A stretch of 64,000 bases of DNA, from positions 1 through 64,000 of the forward strand of contig NZ_JANFDG010000016.1 of NCBI RefSeq assembly GCF_024609765.1, given 5' to 3'. Positions 22,743 to 50,438 of this stretch are shown piece by piece. The translations under genes were made by a program, and so were the position numbers. Within the stretch, counting starts at the first letter, position 1. Each line of letters begins with the position of its first letter. The notes under the pieces are model-generated. The model did no database searches and had not been told where the DNA came from. It saw only the letters and a program-made list of their open reading frames with translations. Source of the stretch: Shinella pollutisoli. Lineage in GTDB: Bacteria; Pseudomonadota; Alphaproteobacteria; Rhizobiales; Rhizobiaceae.

Positions 22743-22819
22743 GCACCCGTAGCTCAGCTGGATAGAGCACCAGACTACGAATCTGGGGGTCAGGAGTTCG
22801 AATCTCTTCGGGTGCGCCA
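22743..22819 (+). tRNA. tRNA-Arg(ACG)
   Basis: 77-nt cloverleaf. Acceptor GCACCCG (22743-22749) pairs with CGGGTGC (22809-22815); D stem GCTC/GAGC; anticodon stem CCAGA/TCTGG around loop CTACGAA, anticodon ACG at 22777-22779; T stem AGGAG/CTCTT around TTCGAAT; discriminator G and encoded CCA (22817-22819). The last 9 bases are the attachment core of the integrated element, so the gene stays complete after integration. A functional tRNA-Arg(ACG), read after A34-to-I editing. Confidence 0.97.
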
Positions 22820-24430
22820 TTTGCGAACAAAACTGGGCACTCCTGCGGGAGTGGCCCCGCCTCCCATGACAAGACGCTCCAGAACGGTCCGGCGACCGTG
22901 GATGCGGATTTCCCGGTCATCGACTTCCACCCCGTCGATGACGGCGCGCAGCCAGGCGCGGCGGAAGGGCGTGTCGCCCGACAGCACGTTGTCGCGCATC
23001 GTGCCGACGAAGGAAGCGATCTTTTCTTCCGTGATTCGCGCTTCCGGGCGCATTTCGGCGACGGCGCGGTCGAACGCGGCCTGCGCAATGTCGCGTTCGG
23101 TCTTCACCGCCGCGATGCGGTCTTTCAGCGTCGGGTCGTTCGGATCGGCAATGCCGTTTTCGATGGCCTGATAGAGCCGCGTCAGCCGCCCTTCCGCCTC
23201 TGACAGCTTGCCCCGCAGCGCCGTCAGGCGGTTGCCGTAGTCCTCATCCCTCTTCGTCTGGCGATCCATCAGGCCGCGCAGCATGTCCGCCACGCGGTCG
23301 GGCATCAGCAGCTCGTCGGAGACGCGGTCCATGACCGCATTGTCGAGCCGGTCCATCGGCACCGAGCGGCCGGCGCAGGCGGTCTTGCCCTTCTGCGCTG
23401 CCGCCGCACAGACATAGTAGCGGTAGCGCCCCGACTTGCCCGTGCGGATGGTCATGCCCCCGCCGCAACTGGCGCAGGTGGCGATGCCAGTCAGCAGGAT
23501 CGGCCCGGTAACGACGCGCGGCGGCAGAACCTTGGGATTGCGTTCCCTCATCTGCGCCTGGAGCGCATCGAAGACGGCCGGGTCGATGATCGGATCGACC
23601 GGCACGATGATGTGCTCGGAGACGGGCTTGGGCTTCCGGGTCTTCGAGTCCATGCGGTTGAAGACAGCCTCGCCCTTGTAGACCGTGTTCGAGATCAGAT
23701 TGTAGAGCGGGCCGATGCCCCACCGCGCGCCGCCGCGTGTGCGGTAGCCGCGCTCGTTCAGCCAGCACACCGCCGCCTTGACGCCCATCGGCCCCGTGGT
23801 GCCGTCCCCTTCCGTCAGCAGCCGGAACATCAGGCGCACGGTCTCGGCCTCGACCGGGTCGATGGCGAGCTTCTTCTTGAAGCGCGCGCCGCGCTGCCCG
23901 ACCACGACCGTCGTATAGCCGAAGGGCGGAGCCGCACCGTTCCAGAAGCCCTGCCGCGCATTCTCGTTCATCGAGCGGCTGACATGCTTGCGAATCTCGT
24001 TCGACTGATACTCGTCGAACAGCGCGAAGACCTGACGCACCATGACGCCGACCGGATCGTCGCCGACATCCTGCGTCATCGACACGAGCCGCACGCCCGC
24101 CTTGGCGAGACGCCGGACGTGCATCTCCTGAAGGAAGGCGTCGCGCATGAAGCGGCTCAGAGAATGGACGACCACCACGTCGAACGGCGGCGCGCCGTTC
24201 GTCGCCAGATCGAGCAGGCGCTGCAATTCGGGGCGGTTGTCCGTGGTGCCGGACAGGCCCGCATCGACAAACTCGTTGACGACCTCCCAGCCCCGCGCCT
24301 TGCAAAAGGCGGTGGCCTGGCGGCGCTGATCGGGAATCGACAGATCGCTTTCAGCCTGACGGCCCGTGGACACACGCATGTAGAGCGCGGCGCGCGAGGC
24401 GACTGGCTGTTCGGCAGGTGCGGTTTTCAT
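22790..24430 (-). CDS. large serine recombinase (integrase of the element)
   Basis: 546 residues. N-terminal resolvase domain with the catalytic Ser21 in YMRVSTGRQ, then SLSRFMRD and the conserved QVFALFDEYQSNEIRKHVSR helix. A recombinase domain with WGIGPLYNLISNTVYKGEAVFNR follows, then a zinc ribbon with Cys319, 322, 341 and 352, and a C-terminal coiled coil (about 385-450). It catalyses strand exchange between attP and attB, cutting in the tRNA-Arg core. The last six codons and the stop lie in the tRNA, outside the element. In the excised circle the frame would continue instead into the right end (stop at 50382). Its start overlaps the upstream small gene by 4 bp. Confidence 0.93.
   Translation of the reverse strand: MKTAPAEQPVASRAALYMRVSTGRQAESDLSIPDQRRQATAFCKARGWEVVNEFVDAGLSGTTDNRPELQRLLDLATNGAPPFDVVVVHSLSRFMRDAFLQEMHVRRLAKAGVRLVSMTQDVGDDPVGVMVRQVFALFDEYQSNEIRKHVSRSMNENARQGFWNGAAPPFGYTTVVVGQRGARFKKKLAIDPVEAETVRLMFRLLTEGDGTTGPMGVKAAVCWLNERGYRTRGGARWGIGPLYNLISNTVYKGEAVFNRMDSKTRKPKPVSEHIIVPVDPIIDPAVFDALQAQMRERNPKVLPPRVVTGPILLTGIATCASCGGGMTIRTGKSGRYRYYVCAAAAQKGKTACAGRSVPMDRLDNAVMDRVSDELLMPDRVADMLRGLMDRQTKRDEDYGNRLTALRGKLSEAEGRLTRLYQAIENGIADPNDPTLKDRIAAVKTERDIAQAAFDRAVAEMRPEARITEEKIASFVGTMRDNVLSGDTPFRRAWLRAVIDGVEVDDREIRIHGRRTVLERLVMGGGATPAGVPSFVRKWRTRRDSNS
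22811..22840 (+). other. attL: core plus left arm
   Basis: Core GGTGCGCCA (22811-22819) is the tRNA 3' end. After a 9-bp spacer, the arm AAAACTGGGCAC (22829-22840) is the exact inverted complement of the right arm. The site lies inside the recombinase reading frame. Confidence 0.88.
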
Positions 24431-24651
24431 TGTCTGGCCCCCCGGCGTTTCGGAATTTCCTCAAGTTCACCATGCATTTGCGGCGGTTCCGAGTCCGGCG
24501 CGAACAAATCGCGCAGCGCCTGTCCGAGAAAGGCTTCGATGGCGTCGAGTTCGGCATTCGTGACCGGCAGGCCGGCAAGATCGTCCGTCACCACGAAGTC
24601 AAACGACTTGGCGGGCGAAGGCATGCCGGTCCTGGGATCGACGGTTTCCAT
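24427..24651 (-). CDS. small protein of unknown function upstream of the recombinase
   Basis: 74 residues from the ATG at 24651 (METVDPRTGMPSPAKSFDF); a GTG at 24693 would add 14 residues but has no ribosome site and falls inside a repeated operator-like motif. Its stop overlaps the recombinase start (ATGA), so both are in one transcript. Acidic, with a predicted helix NAELDAIEAFLGQALRDLFA. It could be a recombination directionality factor because of position and size, but it has no recognisable HTH. Confidence 0.6.
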   Translation of the reverse strand: METVDPRTGMPSPAKSFDFVVTDDLAGLPVTNAELDAIEAFLGQALRDLFAPDSEPPQMHGELEEIPKRRGARQ

Positions 24652-24684
24652 GCCACCGTGATCGCACCGACCGCACCACCCCGT

Positions 24685-24705
24685 ATTGCGCACAAACTGG
24701 TCAGG
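24685..24705 (+). promoter_or_regulatory. operator-like repeat, copy 1 (recombinase operon)
   Basis: ATTGCGCACAAACTGGTCA (24685-24703) is identical to 24 kb-distant-element copy 36887-36905 over 19 bp. It contains TGCGCA and TGGTCA half-sites 11 bp apart and lies 34 bp upstream of the ATG at 24651. Related direct repeats occur at 33067 and 38500. Confidence 0.5.
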
Positions 24706-24914
24706 ATGGCTGCGCTGGCCTGTCCGGCCCTGCCCGACTCCTGCCTTCGCGGTTTCATTGACACCGGCGTTCTGGCGGACCGCGCCGAACCCGCAATGGC
24801 CTGCCCGCTCCTTCGCTCATCGCTCCCGTGTTGACCATTCCCCTCGCGGTGCGCGCCCGGCTTCTTCGGCCCGCCCTGTCACGCGGCATCAACCGCAACA
24901 GGCAGGAGGATGCC

Positions 24915-25562
24915 ATGACCTACAAGACCAACCAGCTCCGCAATTCGATCCAGCGCGGCGACTGCATCGAGGTGATGCGGCAGATGCCGGCCCGCTCCGT
25001 CGATTTCATCCTGACGGACCCGCCCTATCTCGTCCGCTACAAGTCGCGCGACGGGCGCTCGATCGCCAACGACGACAATGCCGACTGGCTGGAGCCGGCA
25101 TCGCGCGCGATGTTCCGCGTCCTGAAGAACGACAGCCTGTGCGTGAGCTTCTACGGCTGGACCCAGACGGACCGCTTCATGAGCGCCTGGCGCGCGGCGG
25201 GATTCCGCATCGTCGGCCATATCGTCTTCCGCAAACGCTATGCCTCGCGGGCACGGTTCGTCAGCTACACGCACGAATCGGCCTATGTGCTGGCCAAGGG
25301 CCGCCCGGTGCTGCCGGCGAACCCGCCGGCCGATGTGATCGATTTCCCCTACAGCGGCAACCGGCTCCATCCGACGCAGAAGCCGGTGGCGGCGCTGAAG
25401 CCCCTGATCGAGGCGTTCTGCCCCGAAGGCGGGCTGGTGCTGGACCCGTTCTGCGGCTCAGGCTCGACCCTGGTCGCGGCCTGTGAGGCAAACTGCGACT
25501 ATCTCGGGATCGAGCTGGACCCTGCCTATCACGGGATCGCAGCCCGGAGGCTGGCGGCATGA
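24915..25562 (+). CDS. orphan DNA methyltransferase (beta-class N6-adenine/N4-cytosine)
   Basis: 215 residues from the ATG at 24915 with CAGGAGG upstream. Motif order is beta-class: the catalytic DPPY motif (TDPPYLVRY, residues 34-42) comes first and the SAM-binding FCGSGST (179-185) near the C-terminus. There is no separate target-recognition domain and no restriction enzyme beside it. It probably modifies element or host DNA to protect the element against host restriction, complementing ArdC. Target site cannot be predicted. Confidence 0.88.
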   Translation: MTYKTNQLRNSIQRGDCIEVMRQMPARSVDFILTDPPYLVRYKSRDGRSIANDDNADWLEPASRAMFRVLKNDSLCVSFYGWTQTDRFMSAWRAAGFRIVGHIVFRKRYASRARFVSYTHESAYVLAKGRPVLPANPPADVIDFPYSGNRLHPTQKPVAALKPLIEAFCPEGGLVLDPFCGSGSTLVAACEANCDYLGIELDPAYHGIAARRLAA

Positions 25563-25696
25563 CGCCGCCGCCTTTGGCCGAGGATCGCTCAGGATGCGTT
25601 CTGGCCCTGACCGGGCCGAACCACCTCCTGAAGGCAATACTGCACTCTCCGGCCCGCTATCGGGCAGGAATCGGCATCGACGGAGAAGCCGCTGCC

Positions 25697-26425
25697 CTAT
25701 GCCGGCAGGACCGGCGGCAGGCCGGCGAGCGGGTTTGTTTCCATATAGCGGCGGAATATCCCGTCCATGCAGCGCATCGCCCATTGCTGGACGCCCATGC
25801 GCTGGCCTTCGACCTGCGCATGGGCGTCCTTCGCCTTGGAATAATATCCCTTGCTCTGATTCAGTGACTCCGGTGTCGCCCCTGGATTTCCAAGGCTTCC
25901 GGGCCAGCGATGGCGGTGATGCGCGGCCATGAGGTTGCCAAGCAGGCGCACGACGAGGCCGACGCACATGCGCGCCCGCTGCGAGACGACTACATCGACC
26001 GCGACATAGCCTTCCCTCTCAAGCTGGCGGAGATAGCGTTGCACGGTGCGCCGGCAACGGCCGAGCGCCCGCGCGAGGTATGTGACTGTCACCGGCAGCG
26101 CCCGGTCTTCCCGGTTCCGGCGATAGGTCAGCTCGGCGAGCTTGCGGGCGCAGCGCCGCGCGCCGTCGCAAAGGTTCGGATCGTCCTCGATGCGCGCGGC
26201 CAGCTCGGGCACATAGGCCCGGCTGTCGCGCGGCGCGGGCTTGCGCGGCCGCCCCGTCTGCGCATAGCGATGGCAGGTGTTGAGCGAGCGTCTGCCCCGT
26301 TCGGTGCGCGGCACAGGCACGGGCTCCCGCTCCCGCGACGCCGGCCCGCCCTGGCTGGCGATCCGGTTCTTGAGACGCGCCGCCGATTCGATGAAGGCGG
26401 CTTGCGGATCATTTTGCATAGTCAC
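25697..26425 (-). CDS. winged-HTH protein, replication-initiator-like
   Basis: 242 residues from a GTG at 26425 preceded by GGGAGG. The N-terminal half is basic and Arg/Pro-rich. Residues about 115-165 form a helix-turn-helix that reads as a winged helix (VTVTYLARALGRCRRTVQRYLRQLEREGYVAVDVV). Hydrophobic residues follow at about 165-185. It sits downstream of a parAB-like pair on the same strand, the arrangement of a plasmid replication/partition block, so a Rep or transcription-factor role is inferred. Not matched to a named Rep family. Confidence 0.6.
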   Translation of the reverse strand: MTMQNDPQAAFIESAARLKNRIASQGGPASREREPVPVPRTERGRRSLNTCHRYAQTGRPRKPAPRDSRAYVPELAARIEDDPNLCDGARRCARKLAELTYRRNREDRALPVTVTYLARALGRCRRTVQRYLRQLEREGYVAVDVVVSQRARMCVGLVVRLLGNLMAAHHRHRWPGSLGNPGATPESLNQSKGYYSKAKDAHAQVEGQRMGVQQWAMRCMDGIFRRYMETNPLAGLPPVLPA

Positions 26426-26482
26426 TGGTTTCCTCCCTTTGGCATGGAGAAAACCCGCAGAAACTCAGGGCGCACAAATCTG

Positions 26483-26501
26483 TCGCAAAATATACTTGCG
26501 A
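26483..26501. promoter_or_regulatory. palindrome upstream of the Rep-like gene
   Basis: TCGCAA (26483-26488) and TTGCGA (26496-26501) form an inverted repeat in an AT-rich stretch 58 bp before the Rep-like start. A second one, GATATTCG/CGAATATC, is at 26519-26526/26541-26548. Either could be an autoregulatory operator or part of an origin. Between these sites and 26779 there is no gene. Confidence 0.45.
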
Positions 26502-26560
26502 TGTTTTTAGATGTCTGAGATATTCGGATTGTTCAGTTCGCGAATATCAAGATTTGAAAC

Positions 26561-26586
26561 ACCCGCTTCGGCGGGTTTTCTTTTTG
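26561..26586 (+). terminator. plus-strand rho-independent terminator in the Rep-like leader
   Basis: ACCCGC (26561-26566), tetraloop TTCG, GCGGGT (26571-26576), then TTTTCTTTTT. It acts on plus-strand transcripts, yet no plus-strand gene precedes it, which suggests a short antisense RNA over the Rep-like leader. A possible promoter is TTGCGA (26496) with GATATT (26519) 17 bp later. Confidence 0.65.
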
Positions 26587-26778
26587 TTAGTTCACTAAAT
26601 CCTCATTTCAGATCAGGCATGACTTCACGCGGCCCGAAACGGGCCAATGCGAATTGTCCGCAATGTCCGGCGCTATAGCAAGTCAGTTCTGTCCGGCAAG
26701 GGTTTCTGCGCCTTTCAGCGCAATGCGAGACATGCGGCAGCGGCCCGTTGCCGCCGCCATCGGCGAATCGCCCGATGG

Positions 26779-27252
26779 CTAGGCGCGGCCGGCGTCCTCT
26801 TCCAGCTCGGCCGTGCGACGCTCGATAAAGGCGCGAACCTCATCGACCATCTTCCGCTTCGTCATGGCGCAGGCGGTCTTGAACCGGGTGTGGGCCGGCT
26901 CCGACAGGTCGATCGTCAGCCGCACGACGGAGCCGGAAATCCGTGTTTCCGTGTTCACGGATTTCCGGGGTTCAGGCTTTGCGGCGATCTGTGAATCCGT
27001 ATCGGCAGGTTTCTGTGAAGGCGGGTTTCCGTGTTCACGGGATTCCGCCTCTGCGGGAATGCGGGTTCCCACATTGTCGTGTTCACGGCCTTCCGCGTTC
27101 ACGCCTGCACGGCTTTCCGCATTGGCGGCTTTCCGTGTTTCCGTGTTCACGGAAGGAGAAGCCCTGCCGGTTTCCTCGAAAGCGGCGATCTGCTCAGGCG
27201 TCGGCTGCCTGACGGGCTTTTTCAGGTCCGCGAATGTTTTCGTGCTCGCCAT
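26779..27252 (-). CDS. ParB-like partition partner with ribbon-helix-helix C-terminus and internal repeats
   Basis: 157 residues. The first 110 are low complexity, built from degenerate repeats such as [21 protein letters not shown] and AEAESREH. The C-terminal 48 ([36 protein letters not shown]) look like a ribbon-helix-helix DNA-binding domain. The start overlaps the end of parA by 59 bp, so it is co-expressed with parA as the likely centromere-binding partner. The repeats are also conspicuous as DNA (TTTCCGTGTTCACGG at 26946, 27026 and 27138). Confidence 0.65.
26946..27152. repeat. TTTCCGTGTTCACGG repeats inside the ParB-like gene
   Basis: Three exact 15-bp copies at 26946-26960, 27026-27040 and 27138-27152, and partial copies at 27077-27088 (GTCGTGTTCACG) and 27092-27102. 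Each holds the inverted repeat CCGTG-TT-CACGG. They encode the protein repeats but may also be a partition-complex binding array. Confidence 0.65.
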
Positions 27253-27868
27253 AACGCAACAACTCCTTCACCAGTCGTTCAATGTCCTTTGCAGCCTCGC
27301 TTTTTGCCGCCCACTCGAAGATCGTCCGGCCTGCCGTCAGCGCCTCTGCGAAGGCGACGCGGTTCTGGATCTCCGTGCGGAGGATCTGAATGCCGGCGTC
27401 GGCGGCGTAGGCTTTGGCCTCGCGGCCGATCACCGTGTTTGCCTGTTTCCGTGAAACCAGAAACACGGCTTCGAGCTGTTCCTTCAGCGCCCGGCCGTTG
27501 TTGACGGCCTCGATCGTTTCGGTTGCCGCCCACAGGGAGGGGCCGCCCGGCTCGATCGGAATGACGACGAGGTCGGAGGCGATCACGACCGAATGCGCGA
27601 TGTCCTTGCCGCGCGCCGGACCGTCGATGATGGTGTGCGTATAGTCGGCGGCCATCGCCATCGCGTCGCGCGCCATCTTCGGGCGCGGCAGCGAGGCGAC
27701 GACGAAGGGTGTCGTCTCGCGCAAGCTGGCCCATTGCGCGGAGGTCTGCTGCGGATCGGCGTCGATCAGCAGGACCTTGTGGCCGGAGCGGGCGAGACGA
27801 GCGGCCGTGTTGACCGCGAGAGTAGTTTTTCCGACGCCGCCTTTTTGATTGAGGAATGAAATAATCAT
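27194..27868 (-). CDS. parA: ParA-family partition ATPase
   Basis: 224 residues, a short ParA without an N-terminal HTH. Deviant Walker A KGGVGKTT at 9-16, A' [11 protein letters not shown] near 39, and Walker B-like [10 protein letters not shown] near 78. ParA ATPases move or position DNA bound by a ParB-type partner. In an integrated element this would stabilise the excised circle. It heads the minus-strand transcript through the ParB-like gene and perhaps the Rep-like gene. Confidence 0.9.
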
Positions 27869-28011
27869 ACCGATATTCTACGGCGGTCATGCGGAAACAC
27901 GGAAACAAAGAAAAAATTCTATCCACATGACCCAGCTTGCCATAATTCTACTTCTTGAAGATTCCTCGATGCGCGAATGCTGATCGTCTACAATTGCGGC
28001 GGAGGATAGTG

Positions 28012-28707
28012 ATGCCCGATATCGACGATCATGATGCCGAATGGCGGGAACGCCCGCAGGACGACCCGCGCTACGTCGCAGCGGCGAAGGCAGCCCGCGA
28101 GGCGTATCTGGCCGCGCATCCGCCTGTCGATTGCTGGATCGACTCGGTTCAGACGATTGACCTCTATCTGGAAGGCCGGCACCGCGCCCGCGTCTTTCCG
28201 CGCAAGGCACGGGCCGACATCTTCGATGAAAACGGCAACACGACAGCTACCGTCACCTATCTGCGATCGGAGACGGCATTCGGCGCTGTCGAAGGCCACC
28301 TTCGCGTCGGACATATTGCCGAGGTGCGCGACGACAGCAACGAGGGCGGCGGAGAGATCAGCCGTTTCCTTCGCAAACAAGCGGAGAAAGATGCCGCGAA
28401 TTTCCGTTCAGCCTGTCCGCCTCCTGATGAGGCCGCCCACTATTTGCAGGAGGCCATCCGCGCCTCGAAGTCTTTCGGCGGCGAAGAAATTCCGGCGGCA
28501 CGCAAATGGCGCGACCTGATCGGCGACGCCCTGGACGCGATCGCCGCCAACGACCGCGCTGCCGCCCACGGCATCGTGCTCACGGCGCTATCCGGCATGG
28601 ACGAGGATGCCCTCTTTGACTGGCAGATGGCCTGGGTTGACTGCGCCCGCGCCGCAGAGGCGCTGCGCAGGGATTTGGAGAAGGCAGGCGGCGAAAGCCG
28701 GGGCTAG
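28012..28707 (+). CDS. hypothetical protein
   Basis: 231 residues from ATG 28012 with GGAGG 6 bp upstream. It begins MPDIDDHDAEWRERPQDDPRY. A predicted beta-rich segment (TIDLYLEGRHRARVFPRKARADIFDENGNTTATVTYL) is followed by a helical C-terminal half (ARKWRDLIGDALDAIAANDRAAAHGIVLTALSGM). No recognised domain and no membrane helix. It diverges from parA. Its TAG stop lies in the loop of the hairpin GGGGCTAGAAGCCCC, one copy of a 20-bp direct repeat. Confidence 0.7.
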   Translation: MPDIDDHDAEWRERPQDDPRYVAAAKAAREAYLAAHPPVDCWIDSVQTIDLYLEGRHRARVFPRKARADIFDENGNTTATVTYLRSETAFGAVEGHLRVGHIAEVRDDSNEGGGEISRFLRKQAEKDAANFRSACPPPDEAAHYLQEAIRASKSFGGEEIPAARKWRDLIGDALDAIAANDRAAAHGIVLTALSGMDEDALFDWQMAWVDCARAAEALRRDLEKAGGESRG

Positions 28708-28719
28708 AAGCCCCGCGCT
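28700..28719. repeat. 20-bp direct repeat, left copy
   Basis: GGGGCTAGAAGCCCCGCGCT, identical to 29591-29610. It is palindromic (GGGGCT/AGCCCC around AGA) and holds the stop of the gene at 28012. Confidence 0.85.
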
Positions 28720-28803
28720 GGATATTACACGCTTCGACGAGTGCTGATAAAAGCAGAACGGTCGTTGATTGATAATCGAGGCGATCAAGAGGGGAGTTTA
28801 GTC

Positions 28804-29235: not shown

Positions 29236-29238
29236 CCA

Positions 29239-29478
29239 TCAAGGGGCGGATGGCGCTGTCGGCTTTAGCATATAGCCCGCGACGCGATAGCCCAATCCGA
29301 TGCCCTGATAGACAGTCGGCACGGACAAAATGAAGAGCGTAGCGGAGAGGCTAAACGGCAGAGCAGCAACTCCCATAAGCACCGCTGAACCGACGAACCA
29401 GGGATTGACCATTCCAATGATGCCATCAGCGCGGCGATTGAACTTTTCATTCAATTGATGGCGAGTTTCTATTTTCAT
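29239..29478 (-). CDS. small membrane protein of the low-GC cassette
   Basis: 79 residues from ATG 29478 with AAAGGG upstream. A soluble N-terminus (MKIETRHQLNEKFNRRADGI) is followed by two hydrophobic segments (about 24-45 and 47-65). Function unknown. It is convergent with the gene at 28804, and both lie between the 20-bp direct repeats. Confidence 0.65.
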   Translation of the reverse strand: MKIETRHQLNEKFNRRADGIIGMVNPWFVGSAVLMGVAALPFSLSATLFILSVPTVYQGIGLGYRVAGYMLKPTAPSAP

Positions 29479-29783: not shown

Positions 29784-30416
29784 GAGTTCCTCCACTCTGT
29801 TGCGACCGGCTTGATTGCCGGCCTTGTGAATGACCCCGGCGTCGGGATGGACGGCGCGCATGCGAAAAAACCGAGGGGAATCGCCCGCCTGCAACCCTTG
29901 TGGTGAAGGCAGGGGATACGGGGCTTTTCGCTTGCGCGGGGAACGGACAGACCGGCGCACATTCACAGCAGGACCGGCAGGAAAGGCAGGTCGTGAACAC
30001 GGGTTCGGAAGGGACTCGGGAAGCGATTGCTGATCTTTGTTGAACAGGACAGGGCAGCGGCAGGGAACGGGCGCGCCCGCGTTGCGGCCAGGCTCGCAGG
30101 CTTCGCCCGGAACCGACCACGGGCCGTTTCCGCCATCCGGTTTTGATCCTTCGCGCGAAGAATAGCGGTGCCGGCCTTGCCGGCGCTTTGACACGCGGGC
30201 CGGTGCCCGCCGTCAGAAGACGGGGGCTTGCAGCCCCCCTTCGTCAAGGACTGGACGCAAGCGCAGCGCGCCGGGTTTCCCCGGCCTTCCGCGCCTTCGG
30301 CTTGTGCAGGCCGGGTGATCCCCCTCCCGGCGCACTGGTCCTTGTCGATCTCCCCCCGCTCATTGGCGCGGGCCTAGTCCGGTTGCATGCGCAACCGAAA
30401 AACTAGGAGAAGATCA
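29784..30416 (+). promoter_or_regulatory. long structured leader of ardC, no gene seen
   Basis: 633 bp with no convincing coding frame. It contains a hairpin GGGGGCT (30222-30228)/AGCCCCC (30232-30238) and a 31-bp motif (30304-30334) about 90% identical to 33515-33544, which lies upstream of another small gene. Such leaders in transferred elements can carry promoters active on incoming single strands; that role is an inference. Confidence 0.4.
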
Positions 30417-31322
30417 ATGAAATCAGACGTTTATCAACGTGTAACCGACAGCATCGTGGCCGAACTGGAAAAGGGCGTGCGCCCTTGGTTCAAGCCGTGG
30501 AACGCCGAGCACACCGCAGGGCGCATTACGCGCCCGCTACGCGCCAACGGCATTCCCTATCGCGGCATCAACATCCTGTTGCTGTGGGACTCAGCCATCA
30601 TGCACGGCTTCACCGCGCCGCTGTGGATGACCTACAAGCAGGCGCAGGAGATGGGCGGACAGGTGCGGAAAGGCGAGAAGGGGAGTCTTGTCGTTTACGC
30701 CAACACCATCACCAAGACCGAGCAGGACGAGGCGACCGGCGAGGACGTGGAGCGGGAAATTCCGTTCATGAAGGGATACACCGTTTTCAACGCCGAGCAG
30801 GTGGACGGGCTGCCCGCGCATTTCTACGCCGTGCAGGCCCCGGCGCTCGACCCCGTGCAGCGCATCGACAGGGCGGAGGCTTTCTTTGCCGCCACCGGCG
30901 CGGAGATCAGGGAAGGCGGAGACCGCGCCTATTACACCGCCGCCGGCGACTATGTGCAGATGCCGCCCTTTGTCGCGTTCGCGCAGCCGGAAGGATTTTA
31001 CGCCATCTTGGCCCATGAGCTGACTCACTGGACGAAGGCCCCGCAGCGCCTCGGCCGTGATCTTGGCCGCAAGCGTTGGGGCGATGAAGGCTATGCGATG
31101 GAGGAACTTGTCGCCGAGCTGGGCGCGGCTTTCATCTGCGCCGATCTGGCGCTGACGCCGGAGCCACGCGCCGAACACGCCGCCTATATCGGATCGTGGC
31201 TGAAGGCGCTGAAGGATGACAAGCGCGCCATCTTCACCGCCGCCGCCCATGCGCAGCGTGCCGCCGACTATCTGACCGGCTTGCAGCCGCAGGAGGCGGA
31301 GGAAGAAAAGGCGGCCGCGTGA
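30417..31322 (+). CDS. ardC: ArdC-like antirestriction protein
   Basis: 301 residues from ATG 30417. The N-terminal ssDNA-binding-type domain (VYQRVTDSIVAELEKG, VRPWFKPW, YRGINILLLW) is followed by a zincin-like metallopeptidase domain with HELTH at 200-204 and downstream Glu in EELVAELGAAF. ArdC proteins protect incoming DNA from type I and II restriction after transfer. It probably works with the orphan methyltransferase. The start was placed at MKSDVY because AGGAG precedes it. Confidence 0.9.
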   Translation: MKSDVYQRVTDSIVAELEKGVRPWFKPWNAEHTAGRITRPLRANGIPYRGINILLLWDSAIMHGFTAPLWMTYKQAQEMGGQVRKGEKGSLVVYANTITKTEQDEATGEDVEREIPFMKGYTVFNAEQVDGLPAHFYAVQAPALDPVQRIDRAEAFFAATGAEIREGGDRAYYTAAGDYVQMPPFVAFAQPEGFYAILAHELTHWTKAPQRLGRDLGRKRWGDEGYAMEELVAELGAAFICADLALTPEPRAEHAAYIGSWLKALKDDKRAIFTAAAHAQRAADYLTGLQPQEAEEEKAAA

Positions 31323-38691: not shown

Positions 38692-38914
38692 GTTGCATCC
38701 CCCGGCATTGCCCGGCGGGCGGCATCGAGCCTTGCCGTGCAACGCAGCGTATCCCGCTGCACCGGACCGAAGGAGCCTTCGTGCTCCCTCTGGACACCCA
38801 TCGACCGGGAGGGAGGATATTGCCTCTCCCTCCTGGACCACCCATGCACCAGCGCCCCGGCGCTGGACCCGGCCGGGGACACCGTGCCCCCGGACCCGCG
38901 AAAGGAGGTGCGCC

Positions 38915-39265
38915 GTGGCCAGTGGCAGCGAGTCCCGCCAGCGCCCGATCATGCTGGCGGCACGCTTCAACGAACAGGAAGCCGAAGCGATCCGGCAAAT
39001 GGCCGATCGCGCGGGTATCCCCGTGGCTTCCCTCATTCGCTCCGCGACGTTGAGCCTGCCGCCGCCGCATGCCGTCCGGCGTCCCACGGCCAGCCACACG
39101 CTGACCGCCCGTCTGCTCGGCGAGGTCGGCCGCCTTGCCGAAACCCTGCATGCGGCCGGCGCGGCGGGCACGCTGGATTTGGACAATCCGCATGTCGCCG
39201 CCGCGCTGCGGGACATCGCCGAGATACGCACCGCCTGCTTCCTGGCCCTCGGGAGGCAGCCATGA
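38915..39265 (+). CDS. mobC: MobC-like relaxosome accessory protein
   Basis: 116 residues from GTG 38915 with AAAGGAGG upstream. MLAARFNEQEAEAIRQMADRAGIPVASLIRSATL is a ribbon-helix-helix pattern of MobC-type plasmid mobilization proteins. It would bind oriT and help the relaxase. The stop overlaps the relaxase start (ATGA). Confidence 0.8.
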   Translation: MASGSESRQRPIMLAARFNEQEAEAIRQMADRAGIPVASLIRSATLSLPPPHAVRRPTASHTLTARLLGEVGRLAETLHAAGAAGTLDLDNPHVAAALRDIAEIRTACFLALGRQP

Positions 39266-40704
39266 TCCTCAAGGGCAGCCAGCGGGCCGGCGGCGCGGAT
39301 CTCGCCACGCACCTGTCGAACGAATACGACAATGAGCGTGTCGAGATCGCGCAGGTGCGCGGGACCGCCGCCCGCGACCTTCACGGCGCGCTCGCGGAAT
39401 ACGAGGCGGTGGCGGCCGGCACCCGCTGCAAGGAGCCGCTTTACAGCCTTGCCATCAACCCGTCCTCGCCTCTGTCCCGCGAGCAATACATGGCGGCCAT
39501 CGACCATATCGAAGGCAAGCTGGGCCTGACCGGCCAGCCGCGCGCCGTGGTCTTCCATGTGAAGAACGGCCGCGAGCATTGCCATGTCGTATGGTCGCGC
39601 ATCGACCTCGACAACATGCGGGCGATCGGCCTCAGCCACGACCGCATGAAGCTCCGCACCTGCGCCCGGGAGCTGGCCCATGCCTACGGCTTGTCCCTGC
39701 CTGCCGGCCTTGCCGAGGATCGCGGCGACGCCCGGTTCGAGAAGAACCGCGACGTGACCTTCGCCGAGAAGGCGATGGCCGAGGCATCCGGTCTCACACC
39801 GGAGCAGCGACGCAGCGAGATCACCGTCCTGTTCCGGGCGTCCGACAGTGCGGAAGCCTTCCGCGCCGGACTGGAACGGGCGGGCTATGTGCTGGCCCAG
39901 GGTGAGCGCCGTGCCTATGTCGTCGTGGACCGGGCCGGCCACGTCCATGCCCTTGCGCGTCAGATCGACGGCGCGAAGACCAGAGACGTGAAAGCCCGCC
40001 TTGCAGACCTGCCGGCCGAGAGGCTGCCGACCGTCAACGCGGCGCAGGCGCAGCAGGTCGCGCGCCAGCAGGCCGTCGATGAACGGCTGCGCGAGAAGGC
40101 CCGTGCGCGTGGCGCGAAGTCGGCGTCGGACCTGAAGGCCAAGCAGGAAACCCGTCGCCACCGTCAGATCGAGGGAAAGCGCCAGCAGCTTGCCGTCACC
40201 CATGCCGCCGAGCGCATCGCGCTTCATGCCGCCCACAAGGCCGAGGAAGGAAAGCTATTCAACATCATCGCCGGCAGGATGTTCGCGCTGTTCGAGCGCG
40301 TTCCCGCCCTGCGGTCGGTGATCGCGCATCTCCGCCGCAATCCGGCGATCAATGCCGCCGAGCGGCATCGCCTCGAGGACGAGGCGCTGGATCGCCGGCA
40401 CGACCGGGAGCGCCATCAGATCGACCGGCGCGCGGTCGCGCTCGACAAGATCGAGGCCCGCGAACGGCGAAGCCTTGTCCGCGATCTTGTCAGGCAGGTG
40501 CGCGTCGAGGATCAATTGCGCGAGGCGCAGAGCGAGCAGCGCGAGCGCGAATTGCGTCAGACGGCCCGCGATATCACGGCCGAAAAGCCTGACAATGAAC
40601 AGCGCACAACGACAGACGATCGACGTGCCCGCATGCAGGAACGGCTTGAACAGGCGCGGCAAAAACCGTCAGGCCCGCAGCGCGGCGGACCGGGATGGGA
40701 ATAG
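39262..40704 (+). CDS. relaxase/mobilization nuclease
   Basis: 480 residues. It begins MILKGSQRAGGADLATHLSN, an entry typical of a relaxase group found on alphaproteobacterial elements. The metal-binding His cluster is HVKNGREHCHVVWSRID with H99, H106 and H108. A Tyr at 22 is a candidate nucleophile but is not proven. The C-terminal half (about 270-480) is a long, highly charged coiled coil. It nicks oriT and pilots the strand through the T4CP. Best described as a PF03432-type relaxase. Confidence 0.88.
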   Translation: MILKGSQRAGGADLATHLSNEYDNERVEIAQVRGTAARDLHGALAEYEAVAAGTRCKEPLYSLAINPSSPLSREQYMAAIDHIEGKLGLTGQPRAVVFHVKNGREHCHVVWSRIDLDNMRAIGLSHDRMKLRTCARELAHAYGLSLPAGLAEDRGDARFEKNRDVTFAEKAMAEASGLTPEQRRSEITVLFRASDSAEAFRAGLERAGYVLAQGERRAYVVVDRAGHVHALARQIDGAKTRDVKARLADLPAERLPTVNAAQAQQVARQQAVDERLREKARARGAKSASDLKAKQETRRHRQIEGKRQQLAVTHAAERIALHAAHKAEEGKLFNIIAGRMFALFERVPALRSVIAHLRRNPAINAAERHRLEDEALDRRHDRERHQIDRRAVALDKIEARERRSLVRDLVRQVRVEDQLREAQSEQRERELRQTARDITAEKPDNEQRTTTDDRRARMQERLEQARQKPSGPQRGGPGWE

Positions 40705-45673: not shown

Positions 45674-46668
45674 GGAGCCGCCCTAGTCGACAGACGCACC
45701 GTGGCGGGTTGACCGAGACGCAGAACATTGTCGGCATCGGCGACGATGATCCTCACCTCATAGACGAGATTGGTGCGCAGCTCTTCAGTCTGCACCGATT
45801 TGGGCGTAAACTCCGCGACCGACGAAATATATCCAACCCTGCCGCTGATCGGTTGGTCAGGCTGGCTATCGATGAAAACACGCGCTTCCATGCCGGGCCT
45901 GATCCTGCCGAGATCGGCCTCCCTGACATAGACGCGCACCCATTTCGGCTCGGTCAGCGCCAGCGCGAACACCGCCGATGAGGAGGTCACCATGTCGCCG
46001 GGCTCGCGCAGCCGCGAACGCACGACGGCATCGACAGGGGCGCGAAGCTGACCCTGCTCAATCTGGTGGCGAAGAAGCGCAAGACTGGCTTCCGATGCCT
46101 TGAATTGCGCTTCGGCGCCAGCGATGTCCTCGGCGCGCGCGCCCGCTTGCGCGAGTGCGAGCGCTGCACGCAGCTCATTGACCTTCGCCTGGGCAGCCTG
46201 CGCGTCAGCGCGTCTCTGATCGACGGTCTGCTCGCTGATCGCACCACTCGCGGAACGCTGCAGGCTCGTCGCTCGAGCATAGTCCTGGTCGGCGCGCGTC
46301 GCCGCCGCCTCGGCTGATGCCAGTTGTGCGCGCGCCTGCTCGATCTCCTCTGGTCGCGATCCGTTGCGAAGTTTCGCGAGCGTTTGCCGCTGCGCCTCGA
46401 CATTGGCCTCCTGCTGCTCGGCCTGAAGCGCCAGTGTCTTCGTGTCGAGAAGGCCGATGACCTGTCCGGCCTTGACGCTGTCGCCTTCTTCGGCCCGGAG
46501 CTCGGCGATCCGGCCGCTGCCGTCGAAAGCGAGCGACACCTGCCGGATGTCGACATTGCCGAAAACCGTCAGCGCGCTCGCATCGTCGGTATTCCGATGG
46601 TTCCACCAGTACCAGCCGCCTGCGGCGAGTGCGGCGATGAGTAGGACGATGACACGGGCTTTCTTCAT
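45670..46668 (-). CDS. HlyD-family membrane-fusion subunit (YbhG-like)
   Basis: 332 residues from ATG 46668. N-terminal anchor (VIVLLIAALAAGGWYWW), barrel-sandwich half (VSLAFDGSGRIAELRAEEGDSVKAGQVIGLLD), a long coiled-coil hairpin (about 80-200) and the second half (LRAPVDAVVRSRLREPGDMV). First gene of the exporter operon, linking the inner-membrane pump to the periplasm or an outer-membrane channel. Stop overlaps the ATPase start. Confidence 0.88.
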   Translation of the reverse strand: MKKARVIVLLIAALAAGGWYWWNHRNTDDASALTVFGNVDIRQVSLAFDGSGRIAELRAEEGDSVKAGQVIGLLDTKTLALQAEQQEANVEAQRQTLAKLRNGSRPEEIEQARAQLASAEAAATRADQDYARATSLQRSASGAISEQTVDQRRADAQAAQAKVNELRAALALAQAGARAEDIAGAEAQFKASEASLALLRHQIEQGQLRAPVDAVVRSRLREPGDMVTSSSAVFALALTEPKWVRVYVREADLGRIRPGMEARVFIDSQPDQPISGRVGYISSVAEFTPKSVQTEELRTNLVYEVRIIVADADNVLRLGQPATVRLSTRAAP

Positions 46669-46715
46669 GAGGCGGACTTTCGGCAACGCGGCTGAGCGGG
46701 CGACCAAATATGGAC

Positions 46716-46738
46716 ACTAAATTTAAATTGAATTTAGT
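46716..46738. promoter_or_regulatory. AT-rich palindromic operator between exporter and regulator operons
   Basis: ACTAAATT (46716-46723) and AATTTAGT (46731-46738), perfect inverted repeat with a 7-bp AT-rich spacer, in the divergent gap. Well placed for the TetR protein at 48024 to control both directions. Confidence 0.7.
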
Positions 46739-46752
46739 CACAAAGATGGTTA

Positions 46753-48024
46753 TTGTCGAGTCCTGTTTGCGAGGAGCCGCCTTTGCCGCACGCCTGCTCT
46801 CCCATCGTCGCGCCTGCGCCTCACATGCCCGGAGCGCCCCCCAACGCTGGAGCCGTGTCCGCATGCTGTGGTTCCTCCGGCCCGGAGGCAGCGCGGGCGC
46901 CGATCGGCATTCGCGGGCGGTCCTTGGGGCTGTCTTGCCGTGTATCCTTTCTGGTTCTTGCAACAGCGCTGGCAGGATGTGCGAGCCGGCCGGGGCCGGA
47001 GACGCTCAATCCTGTCGCGGCCCGTCCAACGGACACACAGGACATCGCCGTCTTCGCCGTGACGGATCGTTCCCTTTCGGGTACGCCGTCCGCTTTCGGT
47101 GGGGATCGTGGGGCTTTGACCTACGAGCAGTTCACGATGCAGACGGTCGGGCCGGCCGGTGCATCTGCGCCGTCGCGCGAAGGCGATCCGTCAAAGGACT
47201 TCATCACTGTCGGGCGGCGGGAGCACGACCGGAAAAGCTTCGAGGCGAGCGTCAGCCGCATGCGGCAAGCCGAAGGCAACAATGTGGTCGTCTTCGTCCA
47301 CGGCTATAATTACAGTTATCAGGAGGCGGTGTTCCGGCTCGCCCAACTGAAGGCCGAGGCGGGCGCTCACGCTGTGCCCGTGCTGTTCTCCTGGCCATCG
47401 CAGGCCGATTTCAGGGGCTATGTCGCCGATCGGGATTCGACGACCTATGCCCGTGACGACCTCGTTCAGCTTCTCACGATGCTCAGCCGTTCGCGCTCTG
47501 GCGGTCGCGTGACGGTCGTCGGTCACAGCATGGGCGCGTGGCTGGTCATGGAAGCGCTGCGCCAGTTGCGGCTTCAGGGTCGGGGCGACGTGATCGCGCG
47601 GCTTCAGGTCGGACTTGCCTCCCCCGACATCGATGTCGACGTCTTCCGCAAGCAGGTGGCGATCGTCGGGCGGCTGTCGCCGCCGCTGACGGTGCTCGTC
47701 TCAAACGATGATCGCGCGCTGGCCGTGTCGAGCCGGATCACCGGCGGCAAGCCTCGCCTCGGCGCGGCCAAGGTGGACGATCCGGAAATCCAGAAGATTG
47801 CCGCGCTCAACGGCGTGCAGATCATCGATATCAGCACATTGCCTTCAAACGACGCCTTCAACCACGACCGTTTCGTGACCTTCGCCGCCCGCTATTCCAC
47901 GGCGGAGCGGGACAGAACGGCGGGTGGCTTCCGGCAGGCCGGGGTCTTTCTGCTCGATACAACAGGCCGCATCCTGTCGGCGCCGTTCAACGGCACGGCG
48001 CAGATCATTGCGGGGGCACAGTGA
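46753..48024 (+). CDS. alpha/beta-hydrolase lipoprotein (DUF900), cargo copy
   Basis: Up to 423 residues; the true start is probably later because the lipoprotein signal (VSFLVLATALAGC) lies about 75 residues in. Then a DUF900 hydrolase: VVVFVHGYNYSYQEAV, nucleophile in VVGHSMGAWLVMEAL, and ASPDIDVDVFRKQ. Likely an envelope esterase or lipase-like protein; substrate unknown. The chromosomal gene at 56122 is a clear relative. The stop overlaps the tetR start. Confidence 0.78.
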   Translation: MSSPVCEEPPLPHACSPIVAPAPHMPGAPPNAGAVSACCGSSGPEAARAPIGIRGRSLGLSCRVSFLVLATALAGCASRPGPETLNPVAARPTDTQDIAVFAVTDRSLSGTPSAFGGDRGALTYEQFTMQTVGPAGASAPSREGDPSKDFITVGRREHDRKSFEASVSRMRQAEGNNVVVFVHGYNYSYQEAVFRLAQLKAEAGAHAVPVLFSWPSQADFRGYVADRDSTTYARDDLVQLLTMLSRSRSGGRVTVVGHSMGAWLVMEALRQLRLQGRGDVIARLQVGLASPDIDVDVFRKQVAIVGRLSPPLTVLVSNDDRALAVSSRITGGKPRLGAAKVDDPEIQKIAALNGVQIIDISTLPSNDAFNHDRFVTFAARYSTAERDRTAGGFRQAGVFLLDTTGRILSAPFNGTAQIIAGAQ

Positions 48025-48767
48025 TGGTGTCGATAGAGGCCGGAGAGAAGCGTGAACCGGAACAAGTGGTCGCCATGAAGAAGACAGTTCGCACCCAGCG
48101 CACGGACGGGGGAGTGACCTATCACCGCATTCTCGACGCGGCGGGCGAGTTGTTTGCTTCGATTGGTCTCGCGGAAACGACAAACAAGATGATTGCGGCG
48201 AAAGCCGAAGTTGACCTTGCTTCGATCAACTATCACTTCGGCAGCCGCAATGGCCTCTATCAGGCGGTCCTGGTCGAGGCCCATCGACGGCTGGTCAGCA
48301 TCGAGAGCCTTCAGCAACTGGTCTCAACCGATTTGCCGGCGCGCGAAAAACTGAGACTGCTCATCGAAATGCTGGTGGAGAGCGCGACCCTCGACCACGG
48401 CTGGCACGCGAGGGTTCTGAGCCGCGAGTTCTTGTCCCCGACCTCCAATCTTCAGGCGCTGCAGCGGAGCGAGATACCGGGCAAGTTTCCCTTCGTGCTC
48501 GCCATTCTGGCCGAGATCACAGCGATCCCATCCGGCGATCCGGCCCTGCTCCGTTGCTTGATCAGCGTCGTTGCCCCTTGCGCGATGCTTCTCGTCGTCG
48601 GGCGGAACGTCTCGGCCTTGGCAGACGAGATCCGTCACATGCCGCGCGAGGATCTGGTCGAGCATCTCTACAGCTTCGCGATCGCCGGACTGGAGGCGAT
48701 CGGCAACTGTCAAGCGAGCCCCGACGCGCGGGGTTCCGCATCTGCCTCCAACGGCCACACTGACTAG
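48024..48767 (+). CDS. TetR-family regulator (CecR-like)
   Basis: 247 residues (a later ATG at 48075 is possible). N-terminal HTH: YHRILDAAGELFASIGLAETTNKMIAAKAEVDLASINYHFGSRNGLYQAV. The C-terminal domain resembles DUF1956 of CecR/YbiH, which in Enterobacteria represses ybhGFSR. Its location opposite an exporter of the same type makes that control likely here, through the palindrome at 46716. Confidence 0.85.
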   Translation: MVSIEAGEKREPEQVVAMKKTVRTQRTDGGVTYHRILDAAGELFASIGLAETTNKMIAAKAEVDLASINYHFGSRNGLYQAVLVEAHRRLVSIESLQQLVSTDLPAREKLRLLIEMLVESATLDHGWHARVLSREFLSPTSNLQALQRSEIPGKFPFVLAILAEITAIPSGDPALLRCLISVVAPCAMLLVVGRNVSALADEIRHMPREDLVEHLYSFAIAGLEAIGNCQASPDARGSASASNGHTD

Positions 48768-48781
48768 AACGGAAAAGAACA

Positions 48782-49945
48782 ATGAAACCACGTGCACTCG
48801 TCGTCGGACTCGGCATCGCCGGTATGTCCAGCGCCATCTCGCTCAAGAAGAACGGTTGGGAGCCGATCATCGTCGAACGCGCGCCTGAAAGGCGTACCGG
48901 CGGCTATTTCATCGGATTGAACGACATCGGGAAAGAGGCGGCCGAAAAGCTTGGAGTGACCGCAGGCATTCACGTCCGCACTCCCGAGAACTCGGAAAAC
49001 TGGCACCTGACAGGAGACGGCAGCCGCGTGCGCGTCGCAGGCTTTGCCGACCAGCCCACCAAGCCCGCAACCCTTCTGCGCGGGGACATAGAGGCCGGGT
49101 TGTGGCAGGCGGTCGACGGCCAGATCGAGGTTCGCTTCGCCACCACCCCGATTGAGATTGCGGAGGGGGGTGAGCGGGTACACGTCCGGCTACGTCACGC
49201 CGACGAGGCCGAAACCGAAGAGACCTTCGACCTCGTAGTCGGCGCGGACGGCCTTCGCTCCACTGTGCGCAAGATGGTGTTCGGACCACATGAAGAATTC
49301 ATGCATTCGCTCAATGCCATCATCTGCGCCTATCAGCTCAGCGGCCAGATTGAGACCTTCCGCCCGAGGGACGGCATCATCCTGAACGACGGCCCGCGCT
49401 CGCTATACGTATTTCCTCTCCAGGATCATACGCCAACAGCGCTCTTCAGTTACCGTACAGATGATATCGATGCGCAATTCAAGAAGCCCCCGGTCGAAAC
49501 GCTTCGGGAGGCGTACAAGGACATGAAAAGCTCTGGCATTGTCGACGAGGCACTGAGCGATCTCGAAAGAGCTGGAAAGAACTATCTGTTCGATTCGGTG
49601 CACGAGGTCCGAATGCCGAAATGGCATAAGGGCCGCGTCGTGCTCGTCGGCGACTCCGCCTGGTGCCTGACGCTCTATTCCGGCGTCGGCGCTTCGATGG
49701 CGATGAAGGGCGGCTACGAGCTGGGCGAGGCGGTTTCCGTAACGAAGGGCGATGTCGCCACCGGACTGGCCAAATGGGAAGAAACGCTCCGTCCGATGGT
49801 GAAAAAGGAGCTGCGCCTCGTCTGGTTCAAGTCGCAGATTTTCGTTCCCACGAACGGGTTCATGTTCATCGTGCGCAGGCTCGTGCTGCGGCTCGGCGGC
49901 CGCTACATCGCCAAGCTCTCGCAAGGTCCCGGAGCGGCTGCATAG
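48782..49945 (+). CDS. FAD-dependent monooxygenase (PHBH/TetX-like)
   Basis: 387 residues. FAD-binding GLGIAGMSSAISLKKNGWEPIIVER at the N-terminus, DG motif VGADGLRSTVRK, and GD motif VLVGDSAWCLTLYSGVGASMA. Class A flavoprotein hydroxylases use NAD(P)H and O2 to hydroxylate aromatic compounds or drugs. Within an exporter operon, drug modification is plausible, but the substrate is not shown by the sequence. A C-terminal helix (about 330-375) is somewhat hydrophobic. Confidence 0.82.
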   Translation: MKPRALVVGLGIAGMSSAISLKKNGWEPIIVERAPERRTGGYFIGLNDIGKEAAEKLGVTAGIHVRTPENSENWHLTGDGSRVRVAGFADQPTKPATLLRGDIEAGLWQAVDGQIEVRFATTPIEIAEGGERVHVRLRHADEAETEETFDLVVGADGLRSTVRKMVFGPHEEFMHSLNAIICAYQLSGQIETFRPRDGIILNDGPRSLYVFPLQDHTPTALFSYRTDDIDAQFKKPPVETLREAYKDMKSSGIVDEALSDLERAGKNYLFDSVHEVRMPKWHKGRVVLVGDSAWCLTLYSGVGASMAMKGGYELGEAVSVTKGDVATGLAKWEETLRPMVKKELRLVWFKSQIFVPTNGFMFIVRRLVLRLGGRYIAKLSQGPGAAA

Positions 49946-50001
49946 ACACATCTACAAACGGTATGAAAGGCTGTCGAAAGGTATTTTCTCGGAGGTCGTG
50001 C

Positions 50002-50292
50002 ATGAAGGGCAATTTATACAGGATAACAATCGATCAACTTGAAGACGCAAAAGGCAATTCCGTGCGGGATTCCTCACTGTCATTCGATTTGAGAAATCAT
50101 GATGACATCTTTGTGGTCGTGCAAAGAATGAAAGACAAAGCTCTTTTCTCTGAAGATGAGGCTACCGCTCTCGCTATAGGACTGAAGCTGTTCGGCGAGG
50201 TCATGTTGGCACATCGCAGCCACGAACTATTTAAGCCCCTCCTGCCGCATTTCGGCGAGTTTATGAAGGAGCTGAAGAAAGGGGCGCGGTAA
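50002..50292 (+). CDS. DUF3861 family protein
   Basis: 96 residues with GGAGG 6 bp upstream. MKGNLYRITIDQLEDAKGNS through LSFDLRNHDDIFVVVQRMK and FGEVMLAHR matches DUF3861. Function unknown. Last gene of the cargo, 138 bp before attR. Confidence 0.8.
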   Translation: MKGNLYRITIDQLEDAKGNSVRDSSLSFDLRNHDDIFVVVQRMKDKALFSEDEATALAIGLKLFGEVMLAHRSHELFKPLLPHFGEFMKELKKGAR

Positions 50293-50408
50293 GAGAGATT
50301 ACCGTGCAGCGCTCATCTCGTTCACCGGCATGAGACGGAACAAGCCGAACACGGACCGGATCAAGCCGGGTTCAACCAAAATTATAAAGGCCCTGCAATG
50401 ACATAGCG

Positions 50409-50438
50409 GTGCCCAGTTTTATCCTGAACGGTGCGCCA
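50409..50438 (+). other. attR: right arm plus core
   Basis: GTGCCCAGTTTT (50409-50420), 9-bp spacer, core GGTGCGCCA (50430-50438). Mirror image of attL. Between 50293 and 50656 there is no gene; the part right of 50438 is chromosomal and would originally have followed the tRNA. Confidence 0.88.

What the first reader, a model, noticed from the sequence alone, without database searches (positions are those of the whole stretch)
22790..50438. Recombinase C-terminus should switch between the integrated and circular states
The attachment core is inside the recombinase reading frame. Integrated, the protein ends ...FVRKWRT-RRDSNS, the last six residues being read from host tRNA-Arg. If the ends are joined by excision, the same frame runs from the core (codons for WRT) into the right end and reads WRT-VQDKTGHRYVIAGPL, stopping at 50382. 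The recombinase would be 9 residues longer in the circle. A state-dependent tail next to the coiled coil could bias integration versus excision.
Basis: partly seen in the sequence, partly recalled or inferred. Interest (0 to 1): 0.75.

Follow-up and report, generated by a model that had tools for sequence, protein, structure and literature searches.

The report
Integration swaps a recombinase's own tail
A mobile DNA element recombines inside its own recombinase gene, so the enzyme is predicted to end in one tail while the element is a free circle and in a host tRNA-derived tail once it is integrated, and related elements in soil bacteria keep this arrangement, which suggests that the circle-only tail matters.

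Summary
The large serine recombinase (22790-24430, minus) ends ...WRT-RRDSNS when integrated (546 aa). Joined at the 9-bp core it would read ...WRT-VQDKTGHRYVIAGPL (555 aa). The predicted junction is a symmetric attP: a 12-bp inverted repeat lies 9 bp from the core on each side. One same-genus genome shows the empty site.

I read 44 right ends (window included), found by patterns covering only their first 30 bp: 38 stop 14-18 codons after WRx, with xYVIVxxL-like or xYAYAIAL-like tails. Column permutations support coding constraint (joint P about 0.003 in each of two groups), but a simpler third-position test does not. The integrated tail is set by whichever antisense tRNA is entered (44 of 47 loci): six residues in 20, otherwise 1 to over 40.

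So the circle-only tail is most likely the native C-terminus, replaced by host sequence at integration. That it controls integration versus excision is untested. The principle is published (Mx8; streptococcal rumA serine integrases; Dehalococcoides DsiB). Apparently new: a widespread tRNA-targeting alphaproteobacterial family, and evidence for selection on the tail.

The parts
22790..24430 (-). Large serine recombinase, integrated form, 546 aa; the last six codons are read from the antisense strand of tRNA-Arg
   Evidence: ORF; Pfam Resolvase, Recombinase, Zn_ribbon_recom
22743..22819 (+). Host tRNA-Arg (ACG), target of integration
   Evidence: ARAGORN
22811..22819 (+). Left core GGTGCGCCA (attL), end of the tRNA
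22829..22840 (+). P arm, outer half of attP (AAAACTGGGCAC), inside the recombinase frame (V-P-S-F on the minus strand)
   Evidence: inverted repeat
50409..50420 (-). P' arm, other half of the attP inverted repeat
50430..50438 (+). Right core GGTGCGCCA (attR)
50382..50429 (-). Circle-only C-terminal codons VQDKTGHRYVIAGPL plus stop
   Evidence: similar tails in relatives
24427..24693 (-). 88-aa ORF overlapping the recombinase start; similar sequence found in 9 of 31 relatives' elements; candidate accessory or directionality protein (inference)
   Evidence: no Pfam match
38737..40704 (+). Relaxase (MobA/VirD2-like) cargo
   Evidence: Pfam PF03432
35184..36809 (-). Type IV coupling protein cargo
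   Evidence: Pfam PF02534
27194..27868 (-). ParA-like ATPase cargo
   Evidence: Pfam
30387..31322 (+). ArdC-like antirestriction cargo
   Evidence: Pfam PF08401 and PF18818

Best explanation
The attachment site attP lies inside the 3' end of the recombinase gene. In the excised circle the gene is complete and ends in a native tail of about 15 residues (close-group consensus W-R-x-GxDETGxxYVIVxxL). Integration at the 3' end of a tRNA gene exchanges the last codons: the native tail is left at the far end of the element, tens of kilobases away, and the integrated gene runs into the antisense strand of whichever tRNA was hit. Shown as sequence: the two frames, the symmetric attP, one empty site, the same design across the family, and a conserved circle tail beside a tRNA-dictated integrated tail. 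Inferred: the circle tail is under protein-level selection and helps the integration reaction (attP x attB), so that integration removes part of its own catalyst and leaves a changed enzyme that must do any excision alone or with a helper. A possible structural reason, from sequence only, is that SFVRKWR and xYVIVxxL are the two strands of a hairpin with DETGN as the turn, so integration would remove the second strand.
For: Frames and junction. attP symmetry. Empty site: (one genome). Of 52 homologous loci (window included; L046 and L010 dropped beforehand as a duplicate and a fragment), 47 have the conserved Trp codon and at least 27 bases after it, and 44 of these read in register into a T-loop-like antisense motif (leniently defined); integrated tails are 6 residues in 20, otherwise 1 to 44, with three not stopping in the stretch read, one of them a contig end. 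ARAGORN finds the tRNA at the junction in 29 of 34 loci scanned: 17 Arg, 9 Ser, 2 Asn, 1 Glu. Right ends chosen by core plus mirrored arm alone, scoring 19 or more of 21: 8 relatives, all 8 with an open frame. Right ends chosen by 30-bp patterns: 44 read, 23 with 15 codons, 8 with 14, 38 with 14-18; reversed-pattern control: none for the close group, one for the far group. Column permutations: close group 2 of 30 sequences with a stop against 11.6 expected, pN/pS 0.77, P(both) = 0.0032; far group 0 of 14 against 3.3, pN/pS 0.49, P(both) = 0.0026; the real frames +1/+2 have 17 and 12 (close) and 12 and 1 (far) sequences with stops. A gene remnant on Agrobacterium pAtCG920 keeps a P arm and tail in one frame; Sinorhizobium kummerowiae has a shorter example.
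Against: A test of third-position diversity alone is not significant (p 0.15-0.18 close, 0.19-0.43 far). Singly, pN/pS is weak in the close group (P = 0.13) and lack of stops is weak in the far group (P = 0.14), and in the close group frame +1 has a similar ratio over codons 12-18 (0.75 against 0.73). The first 7 of the 15 tail codons lie in attP, and TATGTCATTG just outside it is conserved also at silent positions, so a DNA role is possible. The sequences are related and not independent. One of the 44 right ends has an early stop (L209), one is short (L225) and one has no stop in 40 codons (L212). A right end was recognised in only 15 of 31 other elements examined, some of them with the help of the tail itself; examples not found are G744 (100 kb read), G640 (80 kb) and G419 (31 kb). 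No circle or activity was observed. The AlphaFold model (7 sequences, mean pLDDT 62.8) says nothing useful about the tail.
Confidence: 0.7

Rival explanations
1. The open frame is a by-product of DNA constraint: the right end must keep the P' half-site and perhaps another protein-binding sequence, and the tail it happens to encode does nothing.
For: The first 7 of 15 tail codons lie in attP; TATGTCATTG outside the repeat is conserved at the DNA level, and the third-position test is not significant.
Against: Frame-specific lack of stops together with low pN/pS in two groups; stop position conserved outside the searched 30 bp; 14 of the 18 close-group tails that stop at 15 codons end in I or L, through different codons; close and far groups differ in DNA but keep a similar alternating hydrophobic tail.
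Confidence: 0.2
2. Self-disabling integration: without its native tail the integrated recombinase is essentially inactive, and excision depends on a complete relative supplied in trans or on tandem arrays that restore a tail.
For: Integrated tails are dictated by the tRNA and vary in length; remnants and stacked right ends exist; a hybrid tail-restored gene remnant occurs; archaeal suicidal integrases work this way (PMC8371274, passages).
Against: The resolvase, recombinase and zinc-ribbon domains remain in the integrated form; most integrated copies listed have no stop inside, though a few do.
Confidence: 0.2
3. The circle tail is a stability or degradation signal, so integration changes the amount of recombinase rather than its directionality, by analogy with integration-dependent immunity.
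For: Many circle tails end in a short hydrophobic stretch; precedent in mycobacteriophage repressors and integrases (PMC9262239, passages).
Against: None of the 43 tails with a stop ends in AA as an ssrA-like tag would; conservation runs through the tail and not only its end.
Confidence: 0.1

Closest known systems
Streptococcal ICEs in rumA with a single serine integrase (PMC4701971, passages)
   Same: Serine integrase whose att site lies in its own gene; [quoted passage not shown] the authors suggest a functional difference.
   Different: Target is a protein gene (rumA), with reciprocal exchange of both 3' ends and a frame change; no conserved circle tail or selection shown in the passages read.
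DsiB of Dehalococcoides ssrA islands (PMC3146451, passages)
   Same: [quoted passage not shown] authors suggest it may be fully functional only on the circle.
   Different: tmRNA target, CcrB-like with a small partner DsiA; the circle tail was not characterised in the passages read.
Myxococcus phage Mx8 integrase (PMC6070905 and PMC4701971, passages; original papers not held)
   Same: attP inside the integrase gene; integration gives a new 3' end and an integrase with altered activity or specificity.
   Different: Tyrosine integrase; 112 residues replaced by 13.
Archaeal suicidal (SSV-type) integrases (PMC8371274, passages)
   Same: Recombination target within the integrase gene.
   Different: Tyrosine enzymes; the gene is split into two parts, and the review calls such enzymes exclusive to archaea.
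Integration-dependent immunity of mycobacteriophages (PMC9262239, passages)
   Same: attP inside a gene; integration at a tRNA gene (tRNA-Arg for BPs) changes the C-terminus.
   Different: The altered protein is the repressor; loss of an ssrA-like tag stabilises it.

Membership tests
Large serine recombinases | Resolvase, Recombinase and zinc-ribbon domains in order | tested here: met
Large serine recombinases | Coiled coil after the zinc ribbon | tested here: inconclusive
   long helices at 385-424 and 433-459 in a low-confidence model
Large serine recombinases | Short core and a symmetric attP of about 50 bp | tested here: met
   9-bp shared core, 51-bp inverted-repeat site in the joined sequence
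Elements with attP inside the integrase gene (Mx8 / rumA-ICE type) | Integrated and circular frames encode different C-termini | tested here: met
   circle predicted by joining the ends; relatives
Elements with attP inside the integrase gene (Mx8 / rumA-ICE type) | The two protein forms differ in activity | not testable with these tools
   needs a recombination assay
Streptococcal rumA ICE serine integrases | Integration in rumA | tested here: not met
   tRNA-Arg target
Suicidal (SSV-type) integrases | Tyrosine recombinase split into two gene parts | tested here: not met
   serine recombinase, only the final codons exchanged
Integration-dependent immunity | attP inside a repressor gene | tested here: not met
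   attP lies in the recombinase gene
Integrative and mobilizable element | Own integrase plus relaxase | tested here: met
Integrative and mobilizable element | No full conjugation machinery of its own | not tested
   only ten further ORFs were scanned against Pfam

The most novel reading that the evidence does not exclude
A recombination reaction that edits its own enzyme. The full-length circle form, with a completed C-terminal hairpin, performs attP x attB; integration removes the second strand and leaves a form that can no longer integrate but can excise, so that DNA state sets directionality in cis across a large family of tRNA-targeting serine recombinases.
Probability: 0.3. Interest if true: 0.85.

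Novelty: new variant of a known kind. Interest (0 to 1): 0.62.

Why it matters
How serine integrases choose integration over excision is a long-standing question, and this family would supply natural paired forms that differ only in the last residues. The family is common: 36 of 397 order genomes, the window's own included, at E <= 1e-100. Recombinases cloned from integrated genomes would carry an accidental host-encoded tail and lack the native one, which would matter for genome-mined integration tools (inference). A 2014 paper stated that serine integrases were not known to target tRNA genes (PMC4383910, passages); by position this family does so repeatedly.

Tried and rejected
Intact circle junctions: not found in viral contigs with an exact joined pattern. 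In phages a joined peptide gave one weak partial match. In plasmids joined peptides gave contiguous remnants, not intact genes. The Haematobacter hit (H115) has the tail but no P arm.

Viral relatives: a protein query found only two distant ones, 26-27%. A P-arm DNA pattern gave 7 contigs: L037 and L043 carry a recombinase about 69% identical, L040 a partial 32% match without the tRNA motif; the other four were not followed.

Simple third-position diversity test: not significant; kept in the report.

Structure: one AlphaFold job on the window protein with a shallow alignment was too weak for the C-terminus. No fold search was run, since the model is low-confidence.

Rejected: read-through caused by a wrong core (the mirror repeat and the empty site fix the junction); pseudogene (the three domains are present).

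Counts: one search listed 33 places, of which the 30 with loci were read; one search listed 15, of which 14 were read (L227 was already counted). One search took 31 elements besides the window's (one of them the second copy in the own genome); G578 had no usable core and was not scored there, and a right end for it came from the pattern. That pattern, which includes part of the tail, matched in 13 of 16 genomes, not in G744, G080 or G389. L009 (32% identity), L019 and L040 do not show the tRNA motif.

Full report
What was claimed and whether it is there. Both are exact. The recombinase ORF is 22790-24430 on the minus strand, 546 aa, ending FVRKWRTRRDSNS; joined at the repeat GGTGCGCCA (22811-22819 and 50430-50438) the same frame gives 555 aa ending WRTVQDKTGHRYVIAGPL, with the stop at 50382-50384. 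The left repeat is the 3' end of tRNA-Arg(ACG), 22743-22819. The protein has the three Pfam domains of a large serine recombinase.

The junction as a site. In the joined sequence a perfect 12-bp inverted repeat sits 9 bp from the 9-bp core on each side, as expected for a serine recombinase attP of about 50 bp (the expectation is recalled). A scan for core plus mirrored arm over the element ranks the observed right end first with 21 of 21 matches, the next best being 14. One same-genus genome, G800, has the left flank up to the tRNA and then, within 5 bp of the expected spacing, the homologous right flank without the element; the first 148 bases of that flank did not align, while one search aligned 16 bases past the core. 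The other ten relatives' loci compared show the left flank only.

The family. The recombinase has relatives in 11 of 385 class genomes at E <= 1e-60 and in 36 of 397 order genomes at E <= 1e-100, the window's own included in both. I examined 52 loci for the 3' end, the window among them (L046 was dropped as a duplicate of L004 and L010 as a fragment). In 47 the conserved Trp codon and at least 27 bases followed, and in 44 of these the frame enters a T-loop-like antisense motif in register (usually x-D-S-N); L009, L019 and L040 do not. ARAGORN finds the tRNA gene at the junction in 29 of 34 loci scanned (17 Arg, 9 Ser, 2 Asn, 1 Glu), in 6 of 10 loci of the first set (Arg, Glu, Gln; L009's tRNA-Glu lies beyond its match and is not counted), and in four of eight database loci (Asn, Arg, Ser, Thr). 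Each tRNA supplies its own antisense codons, so the integrated tail follows the target: 6 residues in 20 of the 44, otherwise 1 to 44, with three not stopping in the stretch read.

The circle-only tail. I scanned 31 further elements (G578 could not be scored) for core plus mirrored arm, using nothing downstream. Eight relatives scored 19 or more of 21, and in all eight the frame is open: GQDETGHRYVIVGAL, GQDETGHSYVIVCPI, GQDETGHCYVIVGAL, GEDETGNAYVIVFEL, GQDETGNCYAIVCII, and at 44-46% identity GQNETANTYVIEIAR, VEHKNANWKMICSL and a longer one of 24 residues. With a looser search that uses the tail itself, right ends were recognised in 15 of the 31 in all; in the others I found none in the stretch read with these two searches. 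A 30-bp pattern covering only the start of the right end then found 33 places in 27 of 397 genomes with none in the reversed control, and a second pattern for the 50%-identity group found 15 places in 13 of 30 genomes with one control hit. I read 30 and 14 of these. The tail length after WRx is 15 in 23, 14 in 8 and 14-18 in 38 of 44; one has an early stop (L209), one no stop in 40 codons (L212), and the rest are 12, 20, 23 and 31. Of the 18 close-group tails with 15 codons, 14 end in I or L through different codons.

Is it protein-level selection? In the region outside the search pattern, permuting alignment columns shows fewer stops together with lower pN/pS than expected in both groups: close, 2 sequences with stops against 11.6 and pN/pS 0.77, joint P 0.0032; far, 0 against 3.3 and 0.49, joint P 0.0026. 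Taken singly the signals are weaker (close: stops P 0.038, pN/pS P 0.13; far: stops P 0.14, pN/pS P 0.027), and a plain third-position diversity test is not significant. The first 7 of 15 tail codons lie in attP and the next bases are conserved also at silent positions. The sequences are related, so I regard selection on the protein as likely rather than proven.

Natural joined examples. No intact circle junction was found in viral contigs, phages or plasmids; genome collections were not searched for it. On Agrobacterium plasmid pAtCG920 a gene remnant keeps 50 C-terminal residues 82% identical to the window recombinase, running without a break into a far-type circle tail; Sinorhizobium kummerowiae has a shorter example. 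In G392 an older, decayed P arm is followed in frame by the new right end. These look like the outcome of one element landing beside another, which would give the inner recombinase a tail back (inference).

How it probably works. The circle form is the complete gene; integration separates its last codons and replaces them with host antisense tRNA. Since the integrated tail follows the target and the circle tail is conserved, selection on the tail most simply acts on the circle form, for the integration reaction. The sequence pattern (SFVRKWR, turn DETGN, xYVIVxxL) suggests a hairpin whose second strand is lost; this is inference from sequence, and the one structure model made is too weak to test it. 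Excision must then be done by the changed form, perhaps with a helper. An 88-aa ORF overlaps the recombinase start; similar sequence is found in 9 of 31 other elements, in most just upstream of the recombinase, and it has no Pfam match, making it a candidate.

What is known. The principle is in print. Mx8 has attP inside its integrase gene (PMC6070905, passages). Streptococcal rumA ICEs have att inside a serine integrase gene, and the authors propose functional differences (PMC4701971, passages). DsiB of Dehalococcoides overlaps attL and can read into ssrA, and the authors suggest it may be fully functional only on the circle (PMC3146451, passages). Archaeal suicidal integrases and integration-dependent immunity are further analogues (PMC8371274 and PMC9262239, passages). 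In the paper searches I made I saw no description of this tRNA-targeting alphaproteobacterial family or of selection on a circle-only tail; most hits were seen only as listings, supplements were not read, and most subscription papers are not held. [quoted passage not shown] I therefore call it a new variant of a known kind.

Noticed in passing
window 24427-24693 (-): 88-aa ORF overlapping the recombinase start; similar sequence in 9 of 31 other elements, mostly just upstream of the recombinase. Candidate accessory or directionality protein.
   Followed up: partly
G000:C26:35211-36845 (L012): The same genome holds a second recombinase of the family (49% identical) at tRNA-Arg(CCG), and two far-type right ends on another contig (L245, L250).
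   Followed up: partly
G391:C23:112658-119074 (L200): Four right ends of the family lie 1.7-2.9 kb apart with no recombinase match in the 14 kb read, as if small units had been stacked.
   Followed up: partly
L001, L008, L062 just after the recombinase: The tRNA is cut in its 3' half and followed by the same short sequence (CTTCGGAGCAATTT) in three genomes, suggesting another element inserted in the tRNA.
   Followed up: no
window 22811-22819 / 50430-50438: The centre of the predicted attP falls on a palindromic CG or GC, unusual for a serine recombinase crossover (recalled), which normally needs a non-palindromic dinucleotide to fix orientation.
   Followed up: no
attB half-site in the tRNA: The half-site on the tRNA side is the conserved T-arm (antisense GATTCGAAC), which may explain why relatives are found at Arg, Ser, Glu, Gln, Asn and Thr tRNAs.
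   Followed up: partly
L170, L171, L172 (Enterobacter, Klebsiella, Brevundimonas plasmids): Relatives about 48-49% identical occur on plasmids where the 3' end is not at a tRNA; insertion sequences (L170, L171) or mercury- and aminoglycoside-resistance genes (L172) lie nearby. Described only.
   Followed up: partly
L251 and L252 just after the tail: The tail's stop codon is followed on the same strand by a tRNA 3'-end-like sequence (GGTTCGAATCCCGC...).
   Followed up: no
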